Shown here one piece after another: positions 4,990-11,595 of a stretch of DNA of 64,000 nt. Source of the stretch: Pseudarthrobacter defluvii (GTDB lineage: Bacteria > Actinomycetota > Actinomycetes > Actinomycetales > Micrococcaceae). The translations under genes were made by a program, and so were the position numbers. The number at the start of each line of letters is the position of its first letter. Position 1 is the first letter of the stretch. Location: assembly GCF_030816725.1 (NCBI RefSeq), contig NZ_JAUSYG010000001.1, positions 2,914,001-2,978,000 on the forward strand. The letters are read 5' to 3'. The notes beneath the pieces were generated by a model that worked only from the letters and a program-made list of their open reading frames with translations, did no database searches and was not told the DNA's origin.

Positions 4990-5382
4990 TCAGCCCAAGT
5001 ACTGGAGCTGCACCTCGACGAAGCCGTCGCTGACGCGGGTGCTGTACGCTGCCAGCCGCAAGCCGGGGGTGCTGAAGCACTCACCGGTCTCAAGGTCGTA
5101 GACCTCCTTACGCAGCGGCGAGGCGATAGTGGGCCGCGTTCCCTTGGAACCGAGGATGCCGCGGGCCATGACGTGGGCTCCGGTGGCAGGGTCCTCATGG
5201 GCCACCGCAAAGACTTCGCTGGGGCCGGTGCGGAACAGCGCAATCTGGCGGCCTGCCACGAGGGCTGCCTCACCCCAGGCGGGTTCGAGGTCATCCACCA
5301 TGCAGACACGGTGCCAGCCGGTCCCGAACCCGGTGAGGTCTGATTCGGCGGCGAGCGCCCCAAGTTCCAGTGTTGCCGTCAT
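4990..5382 (-). CDS. nirD: Nitrite reductase (NADH) small subunit NirD
   Basis: 130 residues with the Rieske-like beta fold of NirD (WHRVCMVDDL, GRQIALFRT, VFAVAHEDPATGA, SPLRKEVYDLETGEC). It lacks the CxH and CxxH pairs of true Rieske proteins, as NirD does, so it carries no cluster and serves as the structural partner of NirB in reducing nitrite to ammonium. The ATG at 5382 has AAAGGAG six bases upstream; the longer open frame to 5445 has no support. Unlike most bacteria, where nirB and nirD are consecutive, nirD here is divergent from nirB and uses its own promoter in the shared 259-bp region. Confidence 0.9.
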   Translation of the reverse strand: MTATLELGALAAESDLTGFGTGWHRVCMVDDLEPAWGEAALVAGRQIALFRTGPSEVFAVAHEDPATGAHVMARGILGSKGTRPTIASPLRKEVYDLETGECFSTPGLRLAAYSTRVSDGFVEVQLQYLG

Positions 5383-5443: not shown

Positions 5444-5508
5444 ACGCTAGGGTCCAGGTGTTTCAGCGGGGTGCGGCGTATGTGTCCGGCGGGTAAAAGA
5501 GACCTAAC
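5444..5508 (-). promoter_or_regulatory. nirD promoter with phased GlnR-type half-sites
   Basis: On the minus strand, five 5-mers lie exactly 11 bp apart: GTTAG (5508-5504), TTTAC, GACAC, CGCAC and GAAAC (5464-5460). Ten bases later comes the -10 box TAGCGT (5449-5444). The pattern gTnAC-n6-GaAAC is the known actinobacterial GlnR box. The outer half-sites are weak, but the phasing and the spacing to the -10 box repeat those at nirB. Confidence 0.6.
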
Positions 5509-5515
5509 CCGGGCG

Positions 5516-5591
5516 GAAACGCATCCGTGATGCAGAAGTTAAGTTGACGAAACAATTGGGAAACTGAGGCGAAACTGCCCCTTCCTAGGCT
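5516..5591 (+). promoter_or_regulatory. nirB promoter with six phased GlnR-type half-sites
   Basis: Six 5-mers with 6-base spacers run GAAAC (5516), GTGAT (5527), GTTAA (5538), GAAAC (5549), GAAAC (5560), GAAAC (5571). Exactly ten bases after the last comes TAGGCT (5586-5591), a TANNNT -10 box. No good -35 box is seen, which fits activator-dependent transcription. The start would be near 5598, leaving about 44 bases of leader with a Shine-Dalgarno sequence. Confidence 0.7.
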
Positions 5592-5641
5592 GGAGGCACA
5601 AGCTGCAGAGCACCGTCTGCGGCCCATGCGAAAGGCCCACA

Positions 5642-8284
5642 GTGACCGAACAGACCTCAAGCACAGAGACTCCGCGCCGCATCGTCGTCGCCGGCGGCGG
5701 CCCCGCTGCCCACCGTTTTGCGGACGCCATGCATGCCCGCGGCCTCGACGGCTGGCATGTCACGGTCCTTACCGAGGAAGCGCACCTCCCGTACGACCGG
5801 GTGGCGCTCTCCAAAGCTCTCACCGACACCGGCGTGGACCTCACCCTGGGCACCGCCTCCATGTGGGACCACGGCTCGCTGGTCCTGAAGACGGGCGAGC
5901 GCGTGGTAAAAATCAATGCCGCCGCTAAGAAGGTGGAAACCGCCGCCGGGAACGCCTACGCCTACGACGAGCTGGTGGTCGCCACAGGTTCTGATGCTGT
6001 GCGCCTGCCCATCCCCGGTGCTGAGCACGCCCACGTCTACCGCACCCTCGAGGACGTGTGGGCCATCAACAAGGCCATTGCCGGCCTCACCGAAAAGCTC
6101 GGCCGCAAAATTAACGCCGTGACCATCGGCGGCGGGCTCCTCGGCCTCGAATCGGCCGCCGGCACCGAGCAGCTGGGCGCCACCCCCGTGGTCATCAACG
6201 GTGCGCCGTGGCTCATGAACACCCAGCTGGACGAGGGCGCCGGCCAGGCCCTGGGCCGGCTCATCGAAGCCAAGGGCTTCGAAGTCCACGGCGGCGTGTT
6301 CCCCAGCGGGATTTTGGCGGACGACGGCGGCCAGGTCACCGGGGTGCTCATGGCGGACGAGCGCATCATCCCGGCAGACCTGGTCATTGTCGCCGTCGGT
6401 GTCAGGCCCCGCGATGAGCTTTTCCGCGCCGGCGAGGGCGACGAGCAGCTGTTCAGCCTGGGCCAGCGCGGCGGCGTGGTCATCAACGACTACTGCGCCA
6501 CCGAAGTACCAGGGATCTGGGCCATCGGTGAGGTGGCCAACTTCGGCGGCATGTGCCTGGGCCTGGTGGCCCCCGCCAACACCATGGCCGAGATCGTGGC
6601 CGACCGGCTGCACGGCGGCGACGCCACGTTCCCGGGTTTCGACACCGCCACCAAACTGAAACTGTCCGGGGTGGATGTGGCCAGCTTCGGCGATGCCTTC
6701 GCCCGGACCGAACACGCCTTGGAGATCGTCTACGCCGATCCCGCCCGGGGTGTCTACCAGAAGATCGTGACCACCGATGACGCCAAGACCCTGCTGGGCG
6801 GCATCTTCGTAGGCGACGCCTCCCCGTACATGAGCCTGCGCCCGCTCCTGGGCCGCGAACTGCCCGCCGAGCCCGGTGCCTTCCTCAGCGCGGCCGGCGG
6901 CGGTGAAGCCCCCGAAACGGAGCTTCCGGACGACGCCACCCTGTGTTCCTGCAACAACGTCACGGCCGGAACCATCCGCGACGCCGTCAACGGCTGCGGC
7001 GCCTGTGAGGACAACGCACCTGTCCAGGAACTGGGCGAGCTGAAGGGCTGCACCCGGGCCGGCACCCAGTGCGGTTCCTGTGTGCCGATGCTGAAGAAGC
7101 TGCTGGAAACCGAGCTGACCAAGTCCGGCGTCGAGGTTTCCAAGGCCCTGTGCGAGCACATCGAGCTGTCCCGCCAGGAACTGTTCGATGCCATCCGCGT
7201 CCTGGAACTGACCTCCTTCGAGGAGATCATGGCCAAGTACGGCACCGGCGCCGGCTGCGACATCTGCAAGCCCACCATCGCCAACATCCTGGCCAGCCAG
7301 AACAGCGCCTACGTCCTGGACGCCGGCCGCGGAACCCTGCAGGACACCAACGACCGCGCCCTGGCCAACATGCAGAAGGACGGCACCTACTCCGTGGTGC
7401 CGCGCATCGCGGGCGGCGAGATCACCCCGAAGAAACTCGGCGTCATCGCCGCGATCGCGGAAAAATACGGCCTGTACACCAAGATCACCGGCGGCCAGCG
7501 GATCGACATGTTCGGCGCCCGGCTGGAACAGCTGCCGGAGATCTGGAAGGAACTGGTGGATGCCGGCTTCGAGTCCGGACAGGCCTACGGAAAGAGCCTG
7601 CGGACGGTGAAGTCCTGCGTCGGGTCCACCTGGTGCCGGTTCGGCGTCCAGGACTCGGTGGCCATGGCCATCCAGCTGGAGCTGCGCTACCGCGGCCTGC
7701 GGAGCCCGCACAAGCTCAAGATGGGTGTGTCCGGCTGCGCCCGCGAATGCGCCGAGGCCCGCGGCAAGGACGTGGGGGTGATCGCCACCGCCGACGGCTG
7801 GAACCTGTATGTCGGCGGCAACGGCGGTGCCACCCCGGCCCACGCCCAGCTCCTGGCCAAGGACCTGGACGACGAAACGCTGATCAAGTACATCGACCGC
7901 TACTTCATGTACTACATCCGCACCGCGGACCGGCTGCAGCGCACGGCCCGCTGGCAGGAGGAGCTCGACGGCGGCATCAGGCACGTGGAGGACGTGGTGG
8001 TCAAGGACACCCTGGGCATCGCCGCGGACCTCGAGGCCGCCATGGCCAAGCACGTGGACACCTACGTCGACGAGTGGGCCGACACCCTGAAGGACCCCGA
8101 GAGGCTGCGCCGGTTCCGCTCCTTCGTCAACGCGCCGGACCAGAAAGACGACTCCATCACCTTCGTCCCGGACGAACGCGGCCAGATGCGCCCCGCCACC
8201 CAGGAGGAGAAGGGAAAGGTCCTGATCGGCGCCTCAATCCCGGTTCGGACAGCCACAGCGGACACCACCGGAAACGAGGCATAG
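5642..8284 (+). CDS. nirB: Assimilatory nitrite reductase (NADH) large subunit NirB
   Basis: 880 residues, full length. Order of domains: FAD-binding Rossmann fold (VVAGGGPAA at 15), NAD-binding fold (GGGLLG at 163-168), a BFD-like [2Fe-2S] domain with Cys435, Cys437, Cys477 and Cys480, a CDICKP segment, then the ferredoxin-like and siroheme/[4Fe-4S] half with Cys659-x5-Cys665 and Cys699-x3-Cys703. Together with NirD it passes six electrons from NADH to nitrite to give ammonium in the cytosol. The GTG start has GAAAGG six bases upstream. The siroheme-precursor methyltransferase starts three bases after the stop, so the operon supplies its own cofactor. The GlnR-type array upstream suggests nitrogen control. 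Confidence 0.95.
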   Translation: MTEQTSSTETPRRIVVAGGGPAAHRFADAMHARGLDGWHVTVLTEEAHLPYDRVALSKALTDTGVDLTLGTASMWDHGSLVLKTGERVVKINAAAKKVETAAGNAYAYDELVVATGSDAVRLPIPGAEHAHVYRTLEDVWAINKAIAGLTEKLGRKINAVTIGGGLLGLESAAGTEQLGATPVVINGAPWLMNTQLDEGAGQALGRLIEAKGFEVHGGVFPSGILADDGGQVTGVLMADERIIPADLVIVAVGVRPRDELFRAGEGDEQLFSLGQRGGVVINDYCATEVPGIWAIGEVANFGGMCLGLVAPANTMAEIVADRLHGGDATFPGFDTATKLKLSGVDVASFGDAFARTEHALEIVYADPARGVYQKIVTTDDAKTLLGGIFVGDASPYMSLRPLLGRELPAEPGAFLSAAGGGEAPETELPDDATLCSCNNVTAGTIRDAVNGCGACEDNAPVQELGELKGCTRAGTQCGSCVPMLKKLLETELTKSGVEVSKALCEHIELSRQELFDAIRVLELTSFEEIMAKYGTGAGCDICKPTIANILASQNSAYVLDAGRGTLQDTNDRALANMQKDGTYSVVPRIAGGEITPKKLGVIAAIAEKYGLYTKITGGQRIDMFGARLEQLPEIWKELVDAGFESGQAYGKSLRTVKSCVGSTWCRFGVQDSVAMAIQLELRYRGLRSPHKLKMGVSGCARECAEARGKDVGVIATADGWNLYVGGNGGATPAHAQLLAKDLDDETLIKYIDRYFMYYIRTADRLQRTARWQEELDGGIRHVEDVVVKDTLGIAADLEAAMAKHVDTYVDEWADTLKDPERLRRFRSFVNAPDQKDDSITFVPDERGQMRPATQEEKGKVLIGASIPVRTATADTTGNEA

Positions 8285-8287
8285 CTT

Positions 8288-9337
8288 ATGCAGCTCAACA
8301 TCGACCTCACCGGCCGGAACGTCCTGGTGACCGGCACGGACACTTCCGCGCGGCAGGCGGTGCGCCGGTACCAGGCCGCGGGCGCCGTCGTCCACCGCCT
8401 CACCAGCCCGCACGACGCCGGCCCGGACGCGGGCGGCCAGGGCACCTTGTTGCCCGGGCAGCTGTTCCTGGTTGCCGCCGTCGAGGACGGACAGCCGGGC
8501 TGGAGCGCTTTCCTGGGCCGCTGCCGGCAAGCCGGCCTCCCCGTCGCGGCAGAGCCTGCCGCCGGCCCTGCCGGAAACGTCACCCTGGTGGGCGGCGGAC
8601 CCGGCACCGGCGACCTGCTCACCGTGGCCGCCGTCAAGGCGCTGCGGGATGCCGACGTCGTGTTTTACGACCGCCTGGCCCCGTACCAGGAGCTGCCGCT
8701 GCTGACGTCGGCGGAACTCGTCGACGTCGGAAAGAAGCCGGGCCACCACAAGGTCAGCCAGGCGGACATCGAGAAGCTGATGGTGGAAAGCGCCCTGGCC
8801 GGCAACAATGTGGTCCGCCTCAAGGGCGGTGACCCCTATGTCTTTGGCCGCGGCGGCGAGGAAGTGGCCGCCTGCGTGTCCGCGGGGGTGAAGGTGCAGG
8901 TGGTCTCCGGGGTGACCAGCGCCATTTCGGTGCCGGCCGCCGCGGGAATCCCGGTCACCCACCGGGAAGTCAGCCACATGTTCACGGTGGTCTCCGGGCA
9001 CGCCCCGCTGACCGAGCAGGAGCACCACCACCTGGCAGGGTTGGGCGGCACCATTGTGGTGCTCATGGGCATCGGCACCCTCCACCAGCTCGCGGCCGGC
9101 CTGCGCCGGGCCGGGATGCGGCCGGACACGCCCATGGCCGTGGTGGAGCGCGGCTACCGGCCCGGCCAGCGCACCACCATCGCGGACCTTGGGACCATCA
9201 CCTCCGCCGCTGCCGGCTGCAGCAACCCGGCCGTGCTGGTCATCGGCGAGGTGGTGCGGGTGGCTGAAGCGAACCGGAATCACGCCGGGGAGGCCGTGGA
9301 CCTGGACAGGCTGGCGGCGTCGCTGCTGGGATCATGA
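8288..9337 (+). CDS. cobA: Uroporphyrinogen-III C-methyltransferase with degenerate N-terminal domain
   Basis: 349 residues. From about residue 97 this is a complete SUMT: VTLVGGGPGTGDLLT at 98, the RLKGGDPYVFGRGGEE motif near 178, VSGVTSAISVPAAAGIPVTHR and MGIGTLHQL. It makes precorrin-2 from uroporphyrinogen III with two S-adenosylmethionine, the first step to the siroheme of NirB. The first 95 residues (NIDLTGRNVLVTGTDTSA...) look like a shortened remnant of the CysG/Met8-type precorrin-2 dehydrogenase fold but lack a convincing GxGxxA nucleotide loop. Oxidation and iron insertion are therefore probably done by another protein. It sits between nirB (3-base gap) and the NnaR-like gene (overlap or short gap), in one operon. 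Confidence 0.9.
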   Translation: MQLNIDLTGRNVLVTGTDTSARQAVRRYQAAGAVVHRLTSPHDAGPDAGGQGTLLPGQLFLVAAVEDGQPGWSAFLGRCRQAGLPVAAEPAAGPAGNVTLVGGGPGTGDLLTVAAVKALRDADVVFYDRLAPYQELPLLTSAELVDVGKKPGHHKVSQADIEKLMVESALAGNNVVRLKGGDPYVFGRGGEEVAACVSAGVKVQVVSGVTSAISVPAAAGIPVTHREVSHMFTVVSGHAPLTEQEHHHLAGLGGTIVVLMGIGTLHQLAAGLRRAGMRPDTPMAVVERGYRPGQRTTIADLGTITSAAAGCSNPAVLVIGEVVRVAEANRNHAGEAVDLDRLAASLLGS

Positions 9338-9351
9338 AAGGATTGGCCCCC

Positions 9352-10515
9352 ATGACTGCACTTGCACCCGCCGAACAGCTGCGGCCCGAACCACCCCGGG
9401 CCGAGGAAGCCGCGGACATCGCCGAATCGCCGCTGGAGGGCTTCCGCATCGGTGTCACCTCGGACCGTCGCTCGCGCGACCTCATCGAGGCGCTGGAACG
9501 GCGCGGCGCCGAAGTACTGCATGCGCCCGCGCTGAAGATCGCCCCCGTCCAGGAGGACATGCGCCTCATCGAGGACACCAAGGCCATCATTGCGGCCAGG
9601 CCGGACCTCTGCATCGCCACCACAGCGTACGGCATGCGCCGGTGGTGCGAGGCCGCGGATTCCTTTGGCATCGGTGATGAATTGCTGGAAACGCTGGGAA
9701 GCACCCGCATGTTCGTCCGGGGACCCAAAGCCCGCGGTGCCGTGCGCGCGGCCGGCCTTGCCGACGTCGGCATCAGCAGCGACGAGACCACCGCCACCCT
9801 GGTGGACATGCTGCTCGCTGAAGGCGTCCGCGGCAAAACCGTGGCCATGCAGCTGCACGGGTACACCGACGTCCGGCAGATTGAACGGCTGCGGATGTCC
9901 GGCGCAACGTTCCTCACGGTCACGCCCTACCGCTGGGTCAAGCCCGACGGCGAGGACCGGCTTCCCCGGCTGATCGAAGCGGCCTGCAGCGGGAACCTTG
10001 ACGTCCTGACCTTCACCAGCGCCCCCGCGGTGGACGCGATGTGGAGCACGGCCCATGAGATGGGGCTCTACAAGCAGCTGGTGGAGAGCCTGAAGCTCAA
10101 CGTCACCACCGCGGTCGTGGGTCCGGTCACGGCGCAGCCGCTCCTGGACGCCGGGATTACGCCGCTGGTGCCCGAGCGGTTCCGCATGGGCGCCCTCATC
10201 AGGCTGGTCTGCGAGCACCTGGCGCTGAACCATGTCCGGCGGCTCGACACCCGCTCCGGGAACATCGAACTGCGCGGCCGGAGCCTGCGCATCGACGGCA
10301 AGCAGGTGGAACTGGCCCCCGCTCCCCTGCTGCTCCTGCGCGCCCTGCTCGGCGCCGACGGCGCGGTCCTGTCCCGCGAGTCGCTTTCCGACCTGCTGGA
10401 ACTCCGCGGATCCGTGCACGCCCTGGACATGACCGTGAGCCGGCTTCGGTCCTCCCTGCCCGACGGCAAACTGATTGAGACTGTGGTCAAGCGCGGCTAC
10501 CGGATCCGCGTCTGA
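9352..10515 (+). CDS. nnaR: NnaR-like regulator: HemD-type domain fused to OmpR-type winged helix
   Basis: 387 residues from the ATG at 9352, which has GAAAGGA nine bases upstream; an in-frame ATG at 9334 overlapping the preceding stop (ATGA) is the alternative. Residues about 20-270 are a uroporphyrinogen-III synthase fold (IGVTSDRRSRDLIEALERRG, LTFTSAPAVDAMW, TAVVGPVTAQPLLDAGI). Residues about 295-385 are a PhoB/OmpR C-terminal DNA-binding domain ending VVKRGYRIRV. This fusion is the architecture of NnaR, known in Streptomyces and mycobacteria as a regulator of nitrate/nitrite assimilation that works with GlnR. Its place directly behind nirB and the siroheme enzyme supports that. Whether the HemD part still has catalytic activity or only senses a tetrapyrrole cannot be told from sequence. 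Confidence 0.85.
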   Translation: MTALAPAEQLRPEPPRAEEAADIAESPLEGFRIGVTSDRRSRDLIEALERRGAEVLHAPALKIAPVQEDMRLIEDTKAIIAARPDLCIATTAYGMRRWCEAADSFGIGDELLETLGSTRMFVRGPKARGAVRAAGLADVGISSDETTATLVDMLLAEGVRGKTVAMQLHGYTDVRQIERLRMSGATFLTVTPYRWVKPDGEDRLPRLIEAACSGNLDVLTFTSAPAVDAMWSTAHEMGLYKQLVESLKLNVTTAVVGPVTAQPLLDAGITPLVPERFRMGALIRLVCEHLALNHVRRLDTRSGNIELRGRSLRIDGKQVELAPAPLLLLRALLGADGAVLSRESLSDLLELRGSVHALDMTVSRLRSSLPDGKLIETVVKRGYRIRV

Positions 10516-10576
10516 CGTGCTGCAACGCGGTGAATGTGTCCGCCGGCCGCCGGATGAGAGGTGTGTCACGGGTTCT

Positions 10577-10592
10577 GTTACCGGCCGGTAAA
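10577..10592 (+). promoter_or_regulatory. Upstream GlnR-type box before the orphan flavoprotein gene
   Basis: GTTAC (10577-10581), six bases, then GTAAA (10588-10592) matches gTnAC-n6-GaAAC at nine of the ten stated positions allowing n. It lies upstream of, and out of phase with, the array next to the promoter. Confidence 0.4.
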
Positions 10593-10619
10593 TACTGGCG
10601 AACAAGGGCCCGCTAAACA

Positions 10620-10662
10620 GCAACTGCAGGGAAACACGCCGGAAAAGACGCGCACCTACGCT
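10620..10662 (+). promoter_or_regulatory. Promoter and phased half-sites of the orphan flavoprotein gene
   Basis: GCAAC (10620), GAAAC (10631) and GAAAA (10642) are spaced 11 bp apart. Ten bases after the last comes TACGCT (10657-10662). This repeats the half-site phasing and the ten-base distance to the -10 box seen at nirB and nirD. Confidence 0.6.
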
Positions 10663-10716: not shown

Positions 10717-11595
10717 ATGTCCGCTCCGGCACCCTCCACGTCCTCCTCCCCCGCAACCCGCATCGTCATCGCCGGTGCCGGCCCCGCTGCCCAGGCCCTG
10801 GTGGCCCAGCTGGACCGCGCCCGGTTCACCGGCACCATCATCGTGCTGAGCAACCGGGATGACACCCCCGGGGAGCTGTTGGAGCTGGCCATGCTGCCCC
10901 AGGTTTCCGTGCGTTTCGGCCAGCCCGCCAGCCACATCGACGCTGTCAACCGCACGGTGGCAACGGCCGACGGCATGGAATTCGCGTACGACCAACTGGT
11001 GATTGCCACGGGTTCGGCCCCCGTAGCCAGCCCTGTGGACGGTGCCGCGCAGTGCCTGAGCTACGCCACCATCGACGACGCACCGCTCGTATCGAGGGGC
11101 GTCCAGAAGGTTGCCCGGGAGCTGGGCCGCCGTCCGGTGGGCATCCTGGTGGGGACCGGCGCTGCGGCCGGCCAGGCCGAGGCGGTCCTGCGGGCCAGGG
11201 GCGTACGGCCCATCCGCACCACCGCCAGGCCATCCGCCGTCGTTCCTGCGGTCGTTTCCGGCAGGTCCGCTTCCCGGCTGGCCGCGTCGTCGGTGGTCTT
11301 CGAGGACGGCAGCAGCATGACCGGCGACTTCGTCGTCCTCGCCGAGGAGCGGGTTCCGCGCGACGGCCTGGCAGCCAGCGGCGGCCTCCAGACGGCGGCG
11401 GCCGGCGGCATCGTGATCACCCGGGACTACCGCACCTCGGTGCCTGGAATCTGGGCGATTGGGGACGCAGCAGCGTTCGACGGCGTGCGGCTGGGCCTGC
11501 TGGTGGCGGCGGCTTCGGCGGCAGGAGCCTGCGCAACGCAGCTGCTGTCTGCCGCTGCCGCTGCCGCCGCGCCCGCCCTGCAGGCGGCTGCCTAA
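10717..11595 (+). CDS. FAD-dependent oxidoreductase-like protein related to the NirB N-terminus
   Basis: 292 residues, from an ATG with GAAAGGG seven bases upstream. It has the first FAD Rossmann motif ([14 protein letters not shown]), the LVIATGSAP motif and the closing [10 protein letters not shown] motif, so FAD binding is likely. The middle NAD-binding segment ([15 protein letters not shown]) is weak and the protein is much shorter than typical NADH-dependent flavoproteins (about 400 residues). Sequence and order are closest to the first third of NirB. It has no Fe-S or siroheme domain. It shares the NirB/NirD operator pattern, which points to a role in nitrite/nitrate assimilation, perhaps electron delivery to an assimilatory nitrate reductase or to NirB. 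That role is inference. The C-terminus is Ala-rich. Confidence 0.7.

What the first reader, a model, noticed from the sequence alone, without database searches (positions are those of the whole stretch)
5444..10662. Three promoters with identical phased operator layout in the nitrite locus
nirD, nirB and the orphan flavoprotein gene each have GAAAC-type 5-mers repeated every 11 bp (6-base spacers). In all three the last 5-mer ends exactly ten bases before a TANNNT -10 box (TAGCGT, TAGGCT, TACGCT). nirB has six units from 5516 to 5575. Such arrays match the GlnR box gTnAC-n6-GaAAC, but the fixed ten-base distance and the long single-direction GAAAC runs suggest a defined activator geometry, possibly shared by GlnR and the NnaR-like protein encoded in the operon.
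Basis: partly seen in the sequence, partly recalled or inferred. Interest (0 to 1): 0.75.

Follow-up and report, generated by a model that had tools for sequence, protein, structure and literature searches.

The report
Mirror-image switch for nitrite reductase genes
In a soil actinobacterium the two nitrite reductase genes are driven in opposite directions from one mirror-symmetric control region, which looks like a single central binding site for one nitrogen regulator (NnaR) flanked on both sides by four evenly spaced sites for another (GlnR), each at a fixed distance from the start signal; both regulators are known partners, and the symmetric layout is the new part.

Summary
nirB, nirD and the flavoprotein gene have 11-bp-phased GNAAC-like 5-mers ending exactly 10 bp before TANNNT. 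The unit count and the reading need correction. In nirB only the last four units (5538-5575) form a GlnR array. The "unit" at 5527 (GTGAT) is the right half of a TNAC-N18-GTGA palindrome, matching the published mycobacterial NnaR motif, and the 5516 GAAAC lies inside it. The left half of the same palindrome (5505-5508) heads a second four-unit array running to the nirD -10. The region is therefore two-fold symmetric about 5517.5: four GlnR half-sites, NnaR palindrome, four GlnR half-sites, with 59 bp from NnaR half-site to -10 both ways. This holds in 62 of 62 (nirD) and 61 of 62 (nirB) genus loci; other genera keep it more loosely. A related composite precedes narK-nas (28 of 29 genus loci). 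Mycobacterial nirB promoters carry the palindrome 11 bp before their GlnR units (79 of 80). glnA has the four GlnR units and n10 without NnaR. So NnaR and GlnR do not share one array; they have adjacent, phase-locked sites. Known parts, new symmetric arrangement. No binding or transcription start was measured here.

The parts
5505..5530 (.). central NnaR-type palindrome, TAAC-N18-GTGA here (TCAC-N18-GTGA in 43 of 62 genus loci); dyad at 5517.5, exactly midway between the two -10 boxes
   Evidence: motif published for M. smegmatis NnaR (PMC6277429, passage seen)
5538..5575 (+). four 11-bp-phased GlnR half-sites of nirB: GTTAA, GAAAC, GAAAC, GAAAC
5586..5591 (+). nirB -10 box TAGGCT, ten bases after the last half-site
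   Evidence: 61 of 62 genus loci at 59 bp from GTGA, one at 60
5460..5497 (-). four 11-bp-phased GlnR half-sites of nirD: TTTAC, GACAC, CGCAC, GAAAC
5444..5449 (-). nirD -10 box TAGCGT, ten bases after the last half-site
   Evidence: 62 of 62 genus loci at 59 bp
5516..5520 (+).
4990..5382 (-). nirD, nitrite reductase small subunit
   Evidence: TIGR02378 over its cut-off, Rieske_2
5642..8284 (+). nirB, nitrite reductase large subunit
   Evidence: TIGR02374 904 bits, cut-off 578
8288..9337 (+). uroporphyrinogen-III C-methyltransferase (siroheme synthesis)
   Evidence: NF004790, TIGR01469 over cut-off
9334..10515 (+). NnaR-like regulator, HemD domain fused to an OmpR-type DNA-binding domain
   Evidence: NF005568 498 bits, HEM4 and Trans_reg_C
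10566..10591 (+). NnaR-like palindrome TCAC-N18-GTAA of the flavoprotein promoter; 69 bp to the -10, i.e. 10 bp further than in nirB/nirD
10620..10646 (+). three phased GlnR half-sites of the flavoprotein promoter: GCAAC, GAAAC, GAAAA
10657..10662 (+). flavoprotein -10 box TACGCT
10717..11595 (+). orphan flavoprotein (Pyr_redox_2), related to the NirB N-terminal part; beside nnaR in 23 of 31 genus loci

Best explanation
The nirD-nirB intergenic region is a two-fold symmetric bidirectional promoter. One NnaR dimer binds the central palindrome. On each side four GlnR subunits line the DNA head to tail on 11-bp-phased half-sites, the last one ending 10 bp before the -10 box, where the array takes the place of a -35 element and presents GlnR to RNA polymerase. 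Each NnaR half-site lies one helical turn from the first GlnR unit, so NnaR can stabilise GlnR on either side, and both halves of the nitrite reductase rise together when nitrogen is scarce (GlnR) and nitrate or nitrite is the source (NnaR). narK-nas uses a similar composite one way; the flavoprotein gene uses a three-unit variant; glnA uses the GlnR part alone. Shown here: the sequence layout, its conservation and exact spacing, presence of both regulator genes. Taken from the literature: GlnR and NnaR binding and co-activation in other actinobacteria. Inferred: occupancy, cooperativity and signal response in this organism.
For: Dyad of the palindrome and midpoint of the two -10 boxes coincide at 5517.5. 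Genus: nirD spacing 59 bp in 62 of 62 loci, nirB 61 of 62 (one at 60), one shared dyad in 61 of 62. Other genera: palindrome match of at least 6/8 on both sides in 20 of 26 and a shared dyad in 7 of 26, with spacing allowed to vary; composite of at least 16/24 in 24 of 26 (nirB) and 16 of 26 (nirD), 0.0000 of 5400 shuffles each. Unit columns are more conserved than n6 spacers in the genus: 1.96 v 1.46 bits (nirB), 1.73 v 0.97 (nirD). Own-genome composite scan: nirD and nirB at 1 mismatch, narK at 2, then four hits at 3 mismatches; the control gave four hits. narK: phased units, n10 and 59 bp in 28 of 29 genus loci. Mycobacteria: a pattern with GlnR units, n10 and -10 but without the palindrome found 85 stretches; of the 80 listed, 74 have nirB within 400 bp (the other six have too little sequence) and 79 have a perfect 8/8 TCAC..GTGA 11 bp upstream. 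In 79 of those 80 the first ATG/GTG starts 6-7 nt after the -10, as for a leaderless transcript, which supports the -10. GlnR is encoded: L005, 257 bits to PDB 8hih. NnaR is encoded downstream of nirB.
Against: No binding, expression or start-site data for this organism. The own left half-site is TAAC, not TCAC, and the palindrome alone is weak (9/12 of the published motif; 46 of about 64,000 window positions score at least 9). Outside the genus GTGA stands exactly in register in 8 and TCAC in 3 of 26 nirB promoters; with spacing 21-23 and distance 56-63 left free, perfect 8/8 palindromes occur in 7 of 26 (nirB) and 13 of 26 (nirD) (read), and a match of 6/8 under that freedom is expected by chance in roughly one promoter in ten (my estimate). 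nirD units are poor (11/16 in the own genome). The right half-site of narK is GATA, so its palindrome is 6/8 (5/8 in two loci). n10 fails in one amt gene (n9) and, by my reading, in nirD of L106, L107 and L109 (n11). At class level 15 of 68 nirB upstream regions score 18 or more of 29 on a fixed 59-bp template, none of 10 in the family with Streptomyces-sized genomes (no null was run). The mycobacterial pattern was built from promoters that already showed the palindrome, and its hits are close relatives of one another. TANNNT was required when arrays were picked. In M. smegmatis NnaR did not bind msmeg_5360, which carries the motif.
Confidence: 0.78

Rival explanations
1. GlnR alone occupies all phased 5-mers (six at nirB), and NnaR acts elsewhere or indirectly.
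For: GTGAT and GAAAC lie in register with the GlnR units; GAAAC/T at 5516 is kept in 52 of 62 genus loci.
Against: Outside the genus the 5516 unit is GAAAC in 3 of 26 loci, while perfect TCAC..GTGA palindromes occur in 7 (nirB) and 13 (nirD) of 26 (read); TCAC..GTGA is the published NnaR palindrome with the published spacing; the glnA promoter has at best 5 of 8; 79 of 80 mycobacterial nirB promoters have 8 of 8.
Confidence: 0.1
2. MtrA, not GlnR, is the main reader of the arrays, since the MtrA and GlnR DNA-binding domains recognise nearly the same repeats and MtrA binds nirB in mycobacteria.
For: An MtrA-like regulator is encoded (L009, named from recall of MtrA); GTAAC-n6-GTAAC-n10-TANNNT occurs elsewhere in the genome; PMC6277429 passage on MtrA and GlnR motifs.
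Against: The nirB array is GAAAC-rich, as part of the glnA array is; nirB activation depends on GlnR in M. tuberculosis (PMC4950008 passages). MtrA may still compete or repress.
Confidence: 0.07
3. The two promoters work independently and share the palindrome only because the intergenic space is short.
For: In several other genera the two sides seem to have separate elements (L110, L111, L113: best-scoring sites 111-123 bp apart, some of them weak matches); L092 of the genus has them 17 bp apart.
Against: In the genus one dyad is kept in 61 of 62 loci although the intergenic length varies from 245 to 371 bp.
Confidence: 0.25

Closest known systems
GlnR box (gTnAc-n6-GaAAc, a-b-a-b) and the GlnR transcription activation complex, PDB 8hih
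   Same: four head-to-tail 11-bp-phased half-sites before the -10; the encoded GlnR matches the 8hih chain over most of its length; review PMC10704036, passages
   Different: three of four nirB units are b-type GAAAC; a second, mirror array shares the upstream co-activator site
NnaR regulon of Streptomyces and mycobacteria (narK, nirB, nasA)
   Same: same palindrome ctCAC(a/c)-N16-(t/g)GTGag near a GlnR box with similar spacing in most transcripts (PMC6277429, passages); overlapping target genes
   Different: here the palindrome is the pivot of two divergent promoters; I write out the register (NnaR half-site, 11 bp, four units, n10, -10), but the paper's supplementary figure with its spacings was not seen
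SARP promoters (AfsR and others)
   Same: 11-bp direct repeats read by OmpR-type domains at a fixed distance (8 bp from the 3' repeat) to the -10 (PMC10936776, passage)
   Different: the AfsR box has two repeats and other sequences; no second regulator with a shared dyad was described in the passages seen
PhoB class pho-box promoters
   Same: repeats replacing the -35 element about ten bases before the -10 (recalled, not from a call)
   Different: TGTCA repeats, proteobacterial, no NnaR (recalled)

Membership tests
GlnR-activated promoter | gTnAc-n6-GaAAc repeated with 11-bp phase | tested here: met
GlnR-activated promoter | GlnR encoded in the genome | tested here: met
   L005 ORF, 257 bits to 8hih; also GlnR entry 4o1h and 4o1i
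GlnR-activated promoter | same geometry at core nitrogen genes of the same genome | tested here: inconclusive
   glnA met exactly; one amt gene n9; two amt genes and a second glnA-like gene no clear array
GlnR-activated promoter | GlnR binds and activates | not testable with these tools
   needs footprints and a glnR deletion
NnaR target | palindrome ctCAC(a/c)-N16-(t/g)GTGag next to the GlnR box | tested here: met
   own site 9/12 of the motif, weak on its own; 61 of 62 genus loci at least 7/8 of the TCAC..GTGA core
NnaR target | HemD-DNA-binding-domain NnaR encoded | tested here: met
   window 9334-10515; DNA-binding domain 43-46% identical to mycobacterial NnaR in the six loci printed of 31
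NnaR target | NnaR binds | not testable with these tools
   needs EMSA or footprint
SARP-type promoter | 3' repeat 8 bp from the -10 | tested here: not met
   10 bp from the last 5-mer, four repeats; repeat boundaries may be drawn differently in the two families

The most novel reading that the evidence does not exclude
One NnaR dimer at a palindromic pivot nucleates two outward-facing GlnR tetramers at once, giving a single ten-subunit, two-fold symmetric activation complex that couples nirB and nirD output; the HemD-derived domain of NnaR, encoded beside the siroheme methyltransferase downstream of nirB, would add a tetrapyrrole signal to the nitrogen signal. The arrangement would have arisen when nirD was split off and inverted around an already symmetric NnaR site (nirD is divergent in all 88 family loci examined, and in L197 and L198, but co-directional in the other 26 of the 28 loci L197-L224).
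Probability: 0.3. Interest if true: 0.7.

Novelty: new variant of a known kind. Interest (0 to 1): 0.5.

Why it matters
How NnaR helps GlnR is, as far as I could find, open. The exact register conserved in the genus (NnaR half-site, 11 bp, four GlnR units, 10 bp, -10) says which faces of the two proteins could meet and makes cooperativity testable by inserting 5 or 11 bp. The mirror-symmetric nirD-nirB region offers a natural bidirectional promoter in which one co-activator site would serve two promoters of equal geometry, and a simple sequence rule for finding NnaR-GlnR targets in actinobacteria.

Tried and rejected
Six GlnR units at nirB: rejected. A single array shared by GlnR and NnaR: rejected in favour of adjacent sites. 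Short pattern as a genome-wide predictor: too unspecific (27 hits, 17 in the control); many hits lie in long open frames. Class-level template scan with a fixed 59 bp: weak, partly because the mycobacterial form has 58 bp with one base fewer between units 3 and 2; followed by the mycobacterial pattern, which was drawn from those promoters. The left-half count looked at the wrong offset (the pattern's GTGA is the first GlnR unit, not the NnaR half); it was redone and only that is used. A literature source for the PhoB ten-base rule was sought and not found, so it stays recalled. Papers: PMC6277429, PMC10704036, PMC3662644, PMC11162112, PMC10936776, PMC4971064, PMC12830290: passages only; PMC4950008: passages and section 12; Shi 2023 (PMC10235972) and Wang 2013 (PMC3676069) not held, known only through the review; supplementary files not available. 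In the listings and the passages opened I saw no description of a shared, symmetric NnaR site between nirD and nirB; that covers only this library.
Full report
Setting. The window is part of a complete 4.58-Mb genome, G000:C1:2914001-2978000. It carries nirD (minus strand, 5382-4990), nirB (5642-8284), a uroporphyrinogen-III C-methyltransferase gene (8288-9337), an NnaR-like gene (9334-10515, HemD domain plus OmpR-type DNA-binding domain) and a small flavoprotein gene (10717-11595). The genus is unnamed in the tools; from the gene content I take it to be an Arthrobacter-like soil actinobacterium (inference, not tested). A gene group of narK, a nasC-like nitrate reductase gene and a NirB-N-terminal-like reductase gene begins about 8 kb upstream of the window start.

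Observation. All coordinates hold. The arrays are phased at 11 bp and end ten bases before TANNNT in the three promoters. The hexamer 17 bp before the nirB -10 (5563-5568) reads actgag, unlike a -35 element, as expected for an activator-dependent promoter.

What it is. Upstream regions of 62 nirB loci of the genus (own included) and 26 of other genera of the family were compared. The set came from 61 genus and 80 family genomes. Left out were genus genomes without a full-length nirB (G018, G024, G031), genomes with nirB in broken frames (G030, G053), one fragment in G054, fragments in G088, and 6 of 32 full-length or nearly full-length hits outside the genus for which no locus was fetched. Four genus genomes contribute two nirB copies each (G022, G043, G045, G051). 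On the nirB side of the genus: TCAC or TAAC in register in 60 of 62, GTGA in 61, GTTAA in 61, three GAAAC in 58 (the last is GAAAT in four), then n10 and TAGTCT (35), TAGGCT (24), TACGCT (2) or TAGCCT (1). The nirD side, on the other strand, starts from the other half of the same palindrome and reads GTGAG or GTTAG, TTTAC, GACAC, a variable unit, mostly GAAAC, n10, TANNNT. The distance from GTGA to the -10 is 59 bp: nirD 62 of 62, nirB 61 of 62, one dyad for both in 61 of 62. In the window the dyad and the midpoint of the -10 starts coincide at 5517.5. In other genera the layout is looser: the palindrome reaches 6/8 on both sides in 20 of 26 and shares one dyad in 7 of 26 when spacing is left free; GTGA stands in exact register in 8 and TCAC in 3 of 26 nirB promoters.

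Is the palindrome an NnaR site? TCAC-N18-GTGA is the core of ctCAC(a/c)-N16-(t/g)GTGag, found by MEME in M. smegmatis promoters that lose expression without NnaR; [quoted passage not shown] A further check: a DNA pattern with mycobacterial GlnR units, n10 and TANNNT, without the palindrome, was run over the species genomes. It was drawn from promoters that already showed the palindrome, so it tests generality within that group rather than being blind. It found 85 stretches; of the 80 listed, 76 carry Mycobacterium or Mycolicibacterium names and four are metagenome bins named Actinomycetes or Actinomycetota; 74 of 80 have nirB within 400 bp and the other six have too little sequence; 79 of 80 have a perfect TCAC..GTGA and one has 7/8, with GTGA 11 bp upstream of the first unit and half-site spacing 22 (69) or 21 (11). 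M. smegmatis itself is not among the 80 listed. The first start codon follows the -10 by 6-7 nt in 79 of 80, fitting the leaderless transcripts noted in PMC6277429. In M. tuberculosis the nirB GlnR peak (302811-302851) ends just before the mapped start at 302853 (Table 2 of PMC4950008, passage).

Specificity in the own genome. The composite TCAC-N18-GTGA-N40-GAAAC-N10-TANNNT with up to three mismatches gives nirD (1), nirB (1), narK (2), then four hits at 3 mismatches; the control gave four hits. narK shows CTCAC or CTAAC, then GATAG, GTCAC, TTAAC or similar, a CGNCN-like unit, GAAAC or GAAAT, n10, TANNNT with 59 bp in 28 of 29 genus loci; its palindrome is only 6/8 (5/8 in L280 and L286), and the 29th locus (L292) gave no promoter match. 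The flavoprotein gene lies beside nnaR in 23 of 31 genus nnaR loci (one of the eight without it, L179, is at a contig end) and, within 1.5-kb flanks, in the same direction in none of 26 loci of other genera. All 23 have GNAAY-n6-GNAAC-n6-GNAAA-n10-TANNNT, and 21 of 23 have T(C/G)AC-N18-GT(A/G)A (where L188 and L189 are one locus); in the own promoter that palindrome lies 69 bp from the -10, ten more than in nirB. glnA has the four GlnR units and n10 without a palindrome; one amt gene has n9, two amt genes and a second glnA-like gene have no clear array.

Chance. Dinucleotide shuffles of the intergenic DNA of own plus 26 other-genus loci (200 each, 5400 per side): GlnR score of at least 10/16 in 0.11%, observed 25 of 26 (nirB) and 15 of 26 (nirD); composite of at least 16/24 in 0.0000, observed 24 of 26 and 16 of 26. 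In the genus unit columns hold 1.96 bits against 1.46 in the n6 spacers (nirB) and 1.73 against 0.97 (nirD). The same contrast in other genera (1.26 v 0.58 and 1.04 v 0.48) is inflated, since arrays were chosen by their score.

Depth. At class level 68 of about one hundred nirB upstream regions listed were read (28 loci, 40 fetched stretches, one of them only 180 bp long). Fifteen of 68 reach 18 or more of 29 on a fixed 59-bp template; none of ten in the family with 6-10-Mb genomes does. No null was computed for that score, and the template misses the 58-bp mycobacterial form. nirD is divergent in all 88 family loci examined and in L197 and L198, co-directional in the other 26 of the 28 loci L197-L224.

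Mechanism. If transcription starts about seven bases after the -10 box, the GlnR units lie near -25, -36, -47 and -58 and the NnaR half-sites near -70 and -92. Four head-to-tail GlnR units fit the GlnR activation complex as described in the review PMC10704036 (passage); the encoded GlnR matches the 8hih chain. NnaR, one turn upstream, is a plausible co-activator, as reported for the Streptomyces nirB promoter (same review). The mirror layout would let one NnaR dimer serve both genes. Occupancy and cooperativity are inferred.

Novelty. GlnR boxes, NnaR sites, their similar spacing and fixed-distance 11-bp repeats are known. I did not see the shared symmetric arrangement in the listings or in the passages opened; supplementary figures, where spacing may be shown, were not available. 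I file it as a new variant of a known kind.

Noticed in passing
10578-10591: Perfect inverted repeat TTACCGGCCGGTAA inside the NnaR-like palindrome of the flavoprotein promoter, exact in 15 of 23 genus promoters (L188 and L189 counted once).
   Followed up: partly
L019 and L020 (G000:C1:35071 and 746827): GTAAC-n6-GTAAC-n10-TAG(T/C)CT hits; the gene after L020 looks like an FHA-domain protein by eye. Possibly MtrA sites with the same ten-base rule.
   Followed up: no
L043 (G000:C1:4463850, minus strand): CTAAC-GAAAC-GTAAC-n10-TAGCCT before a gene that by eye looks like a GNAT acetyltransferase; candidate GlnR or MtrA target.
   Followed up: no
L021 and L040 (G000:C1:1248106 and 3931065): Two identical array-like hits, suggesting a repeated element.
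   Followed up: no
G022, G043, G045, G051 (L092-L095, L097-L100): Two nirB copies per genome, each with its own divergent nirD and composite promoter.
   Followed up: partly
G030 and G053: nirB in several broken frames in these two genus genomes; decay or sequencing error.
   Followed up: no
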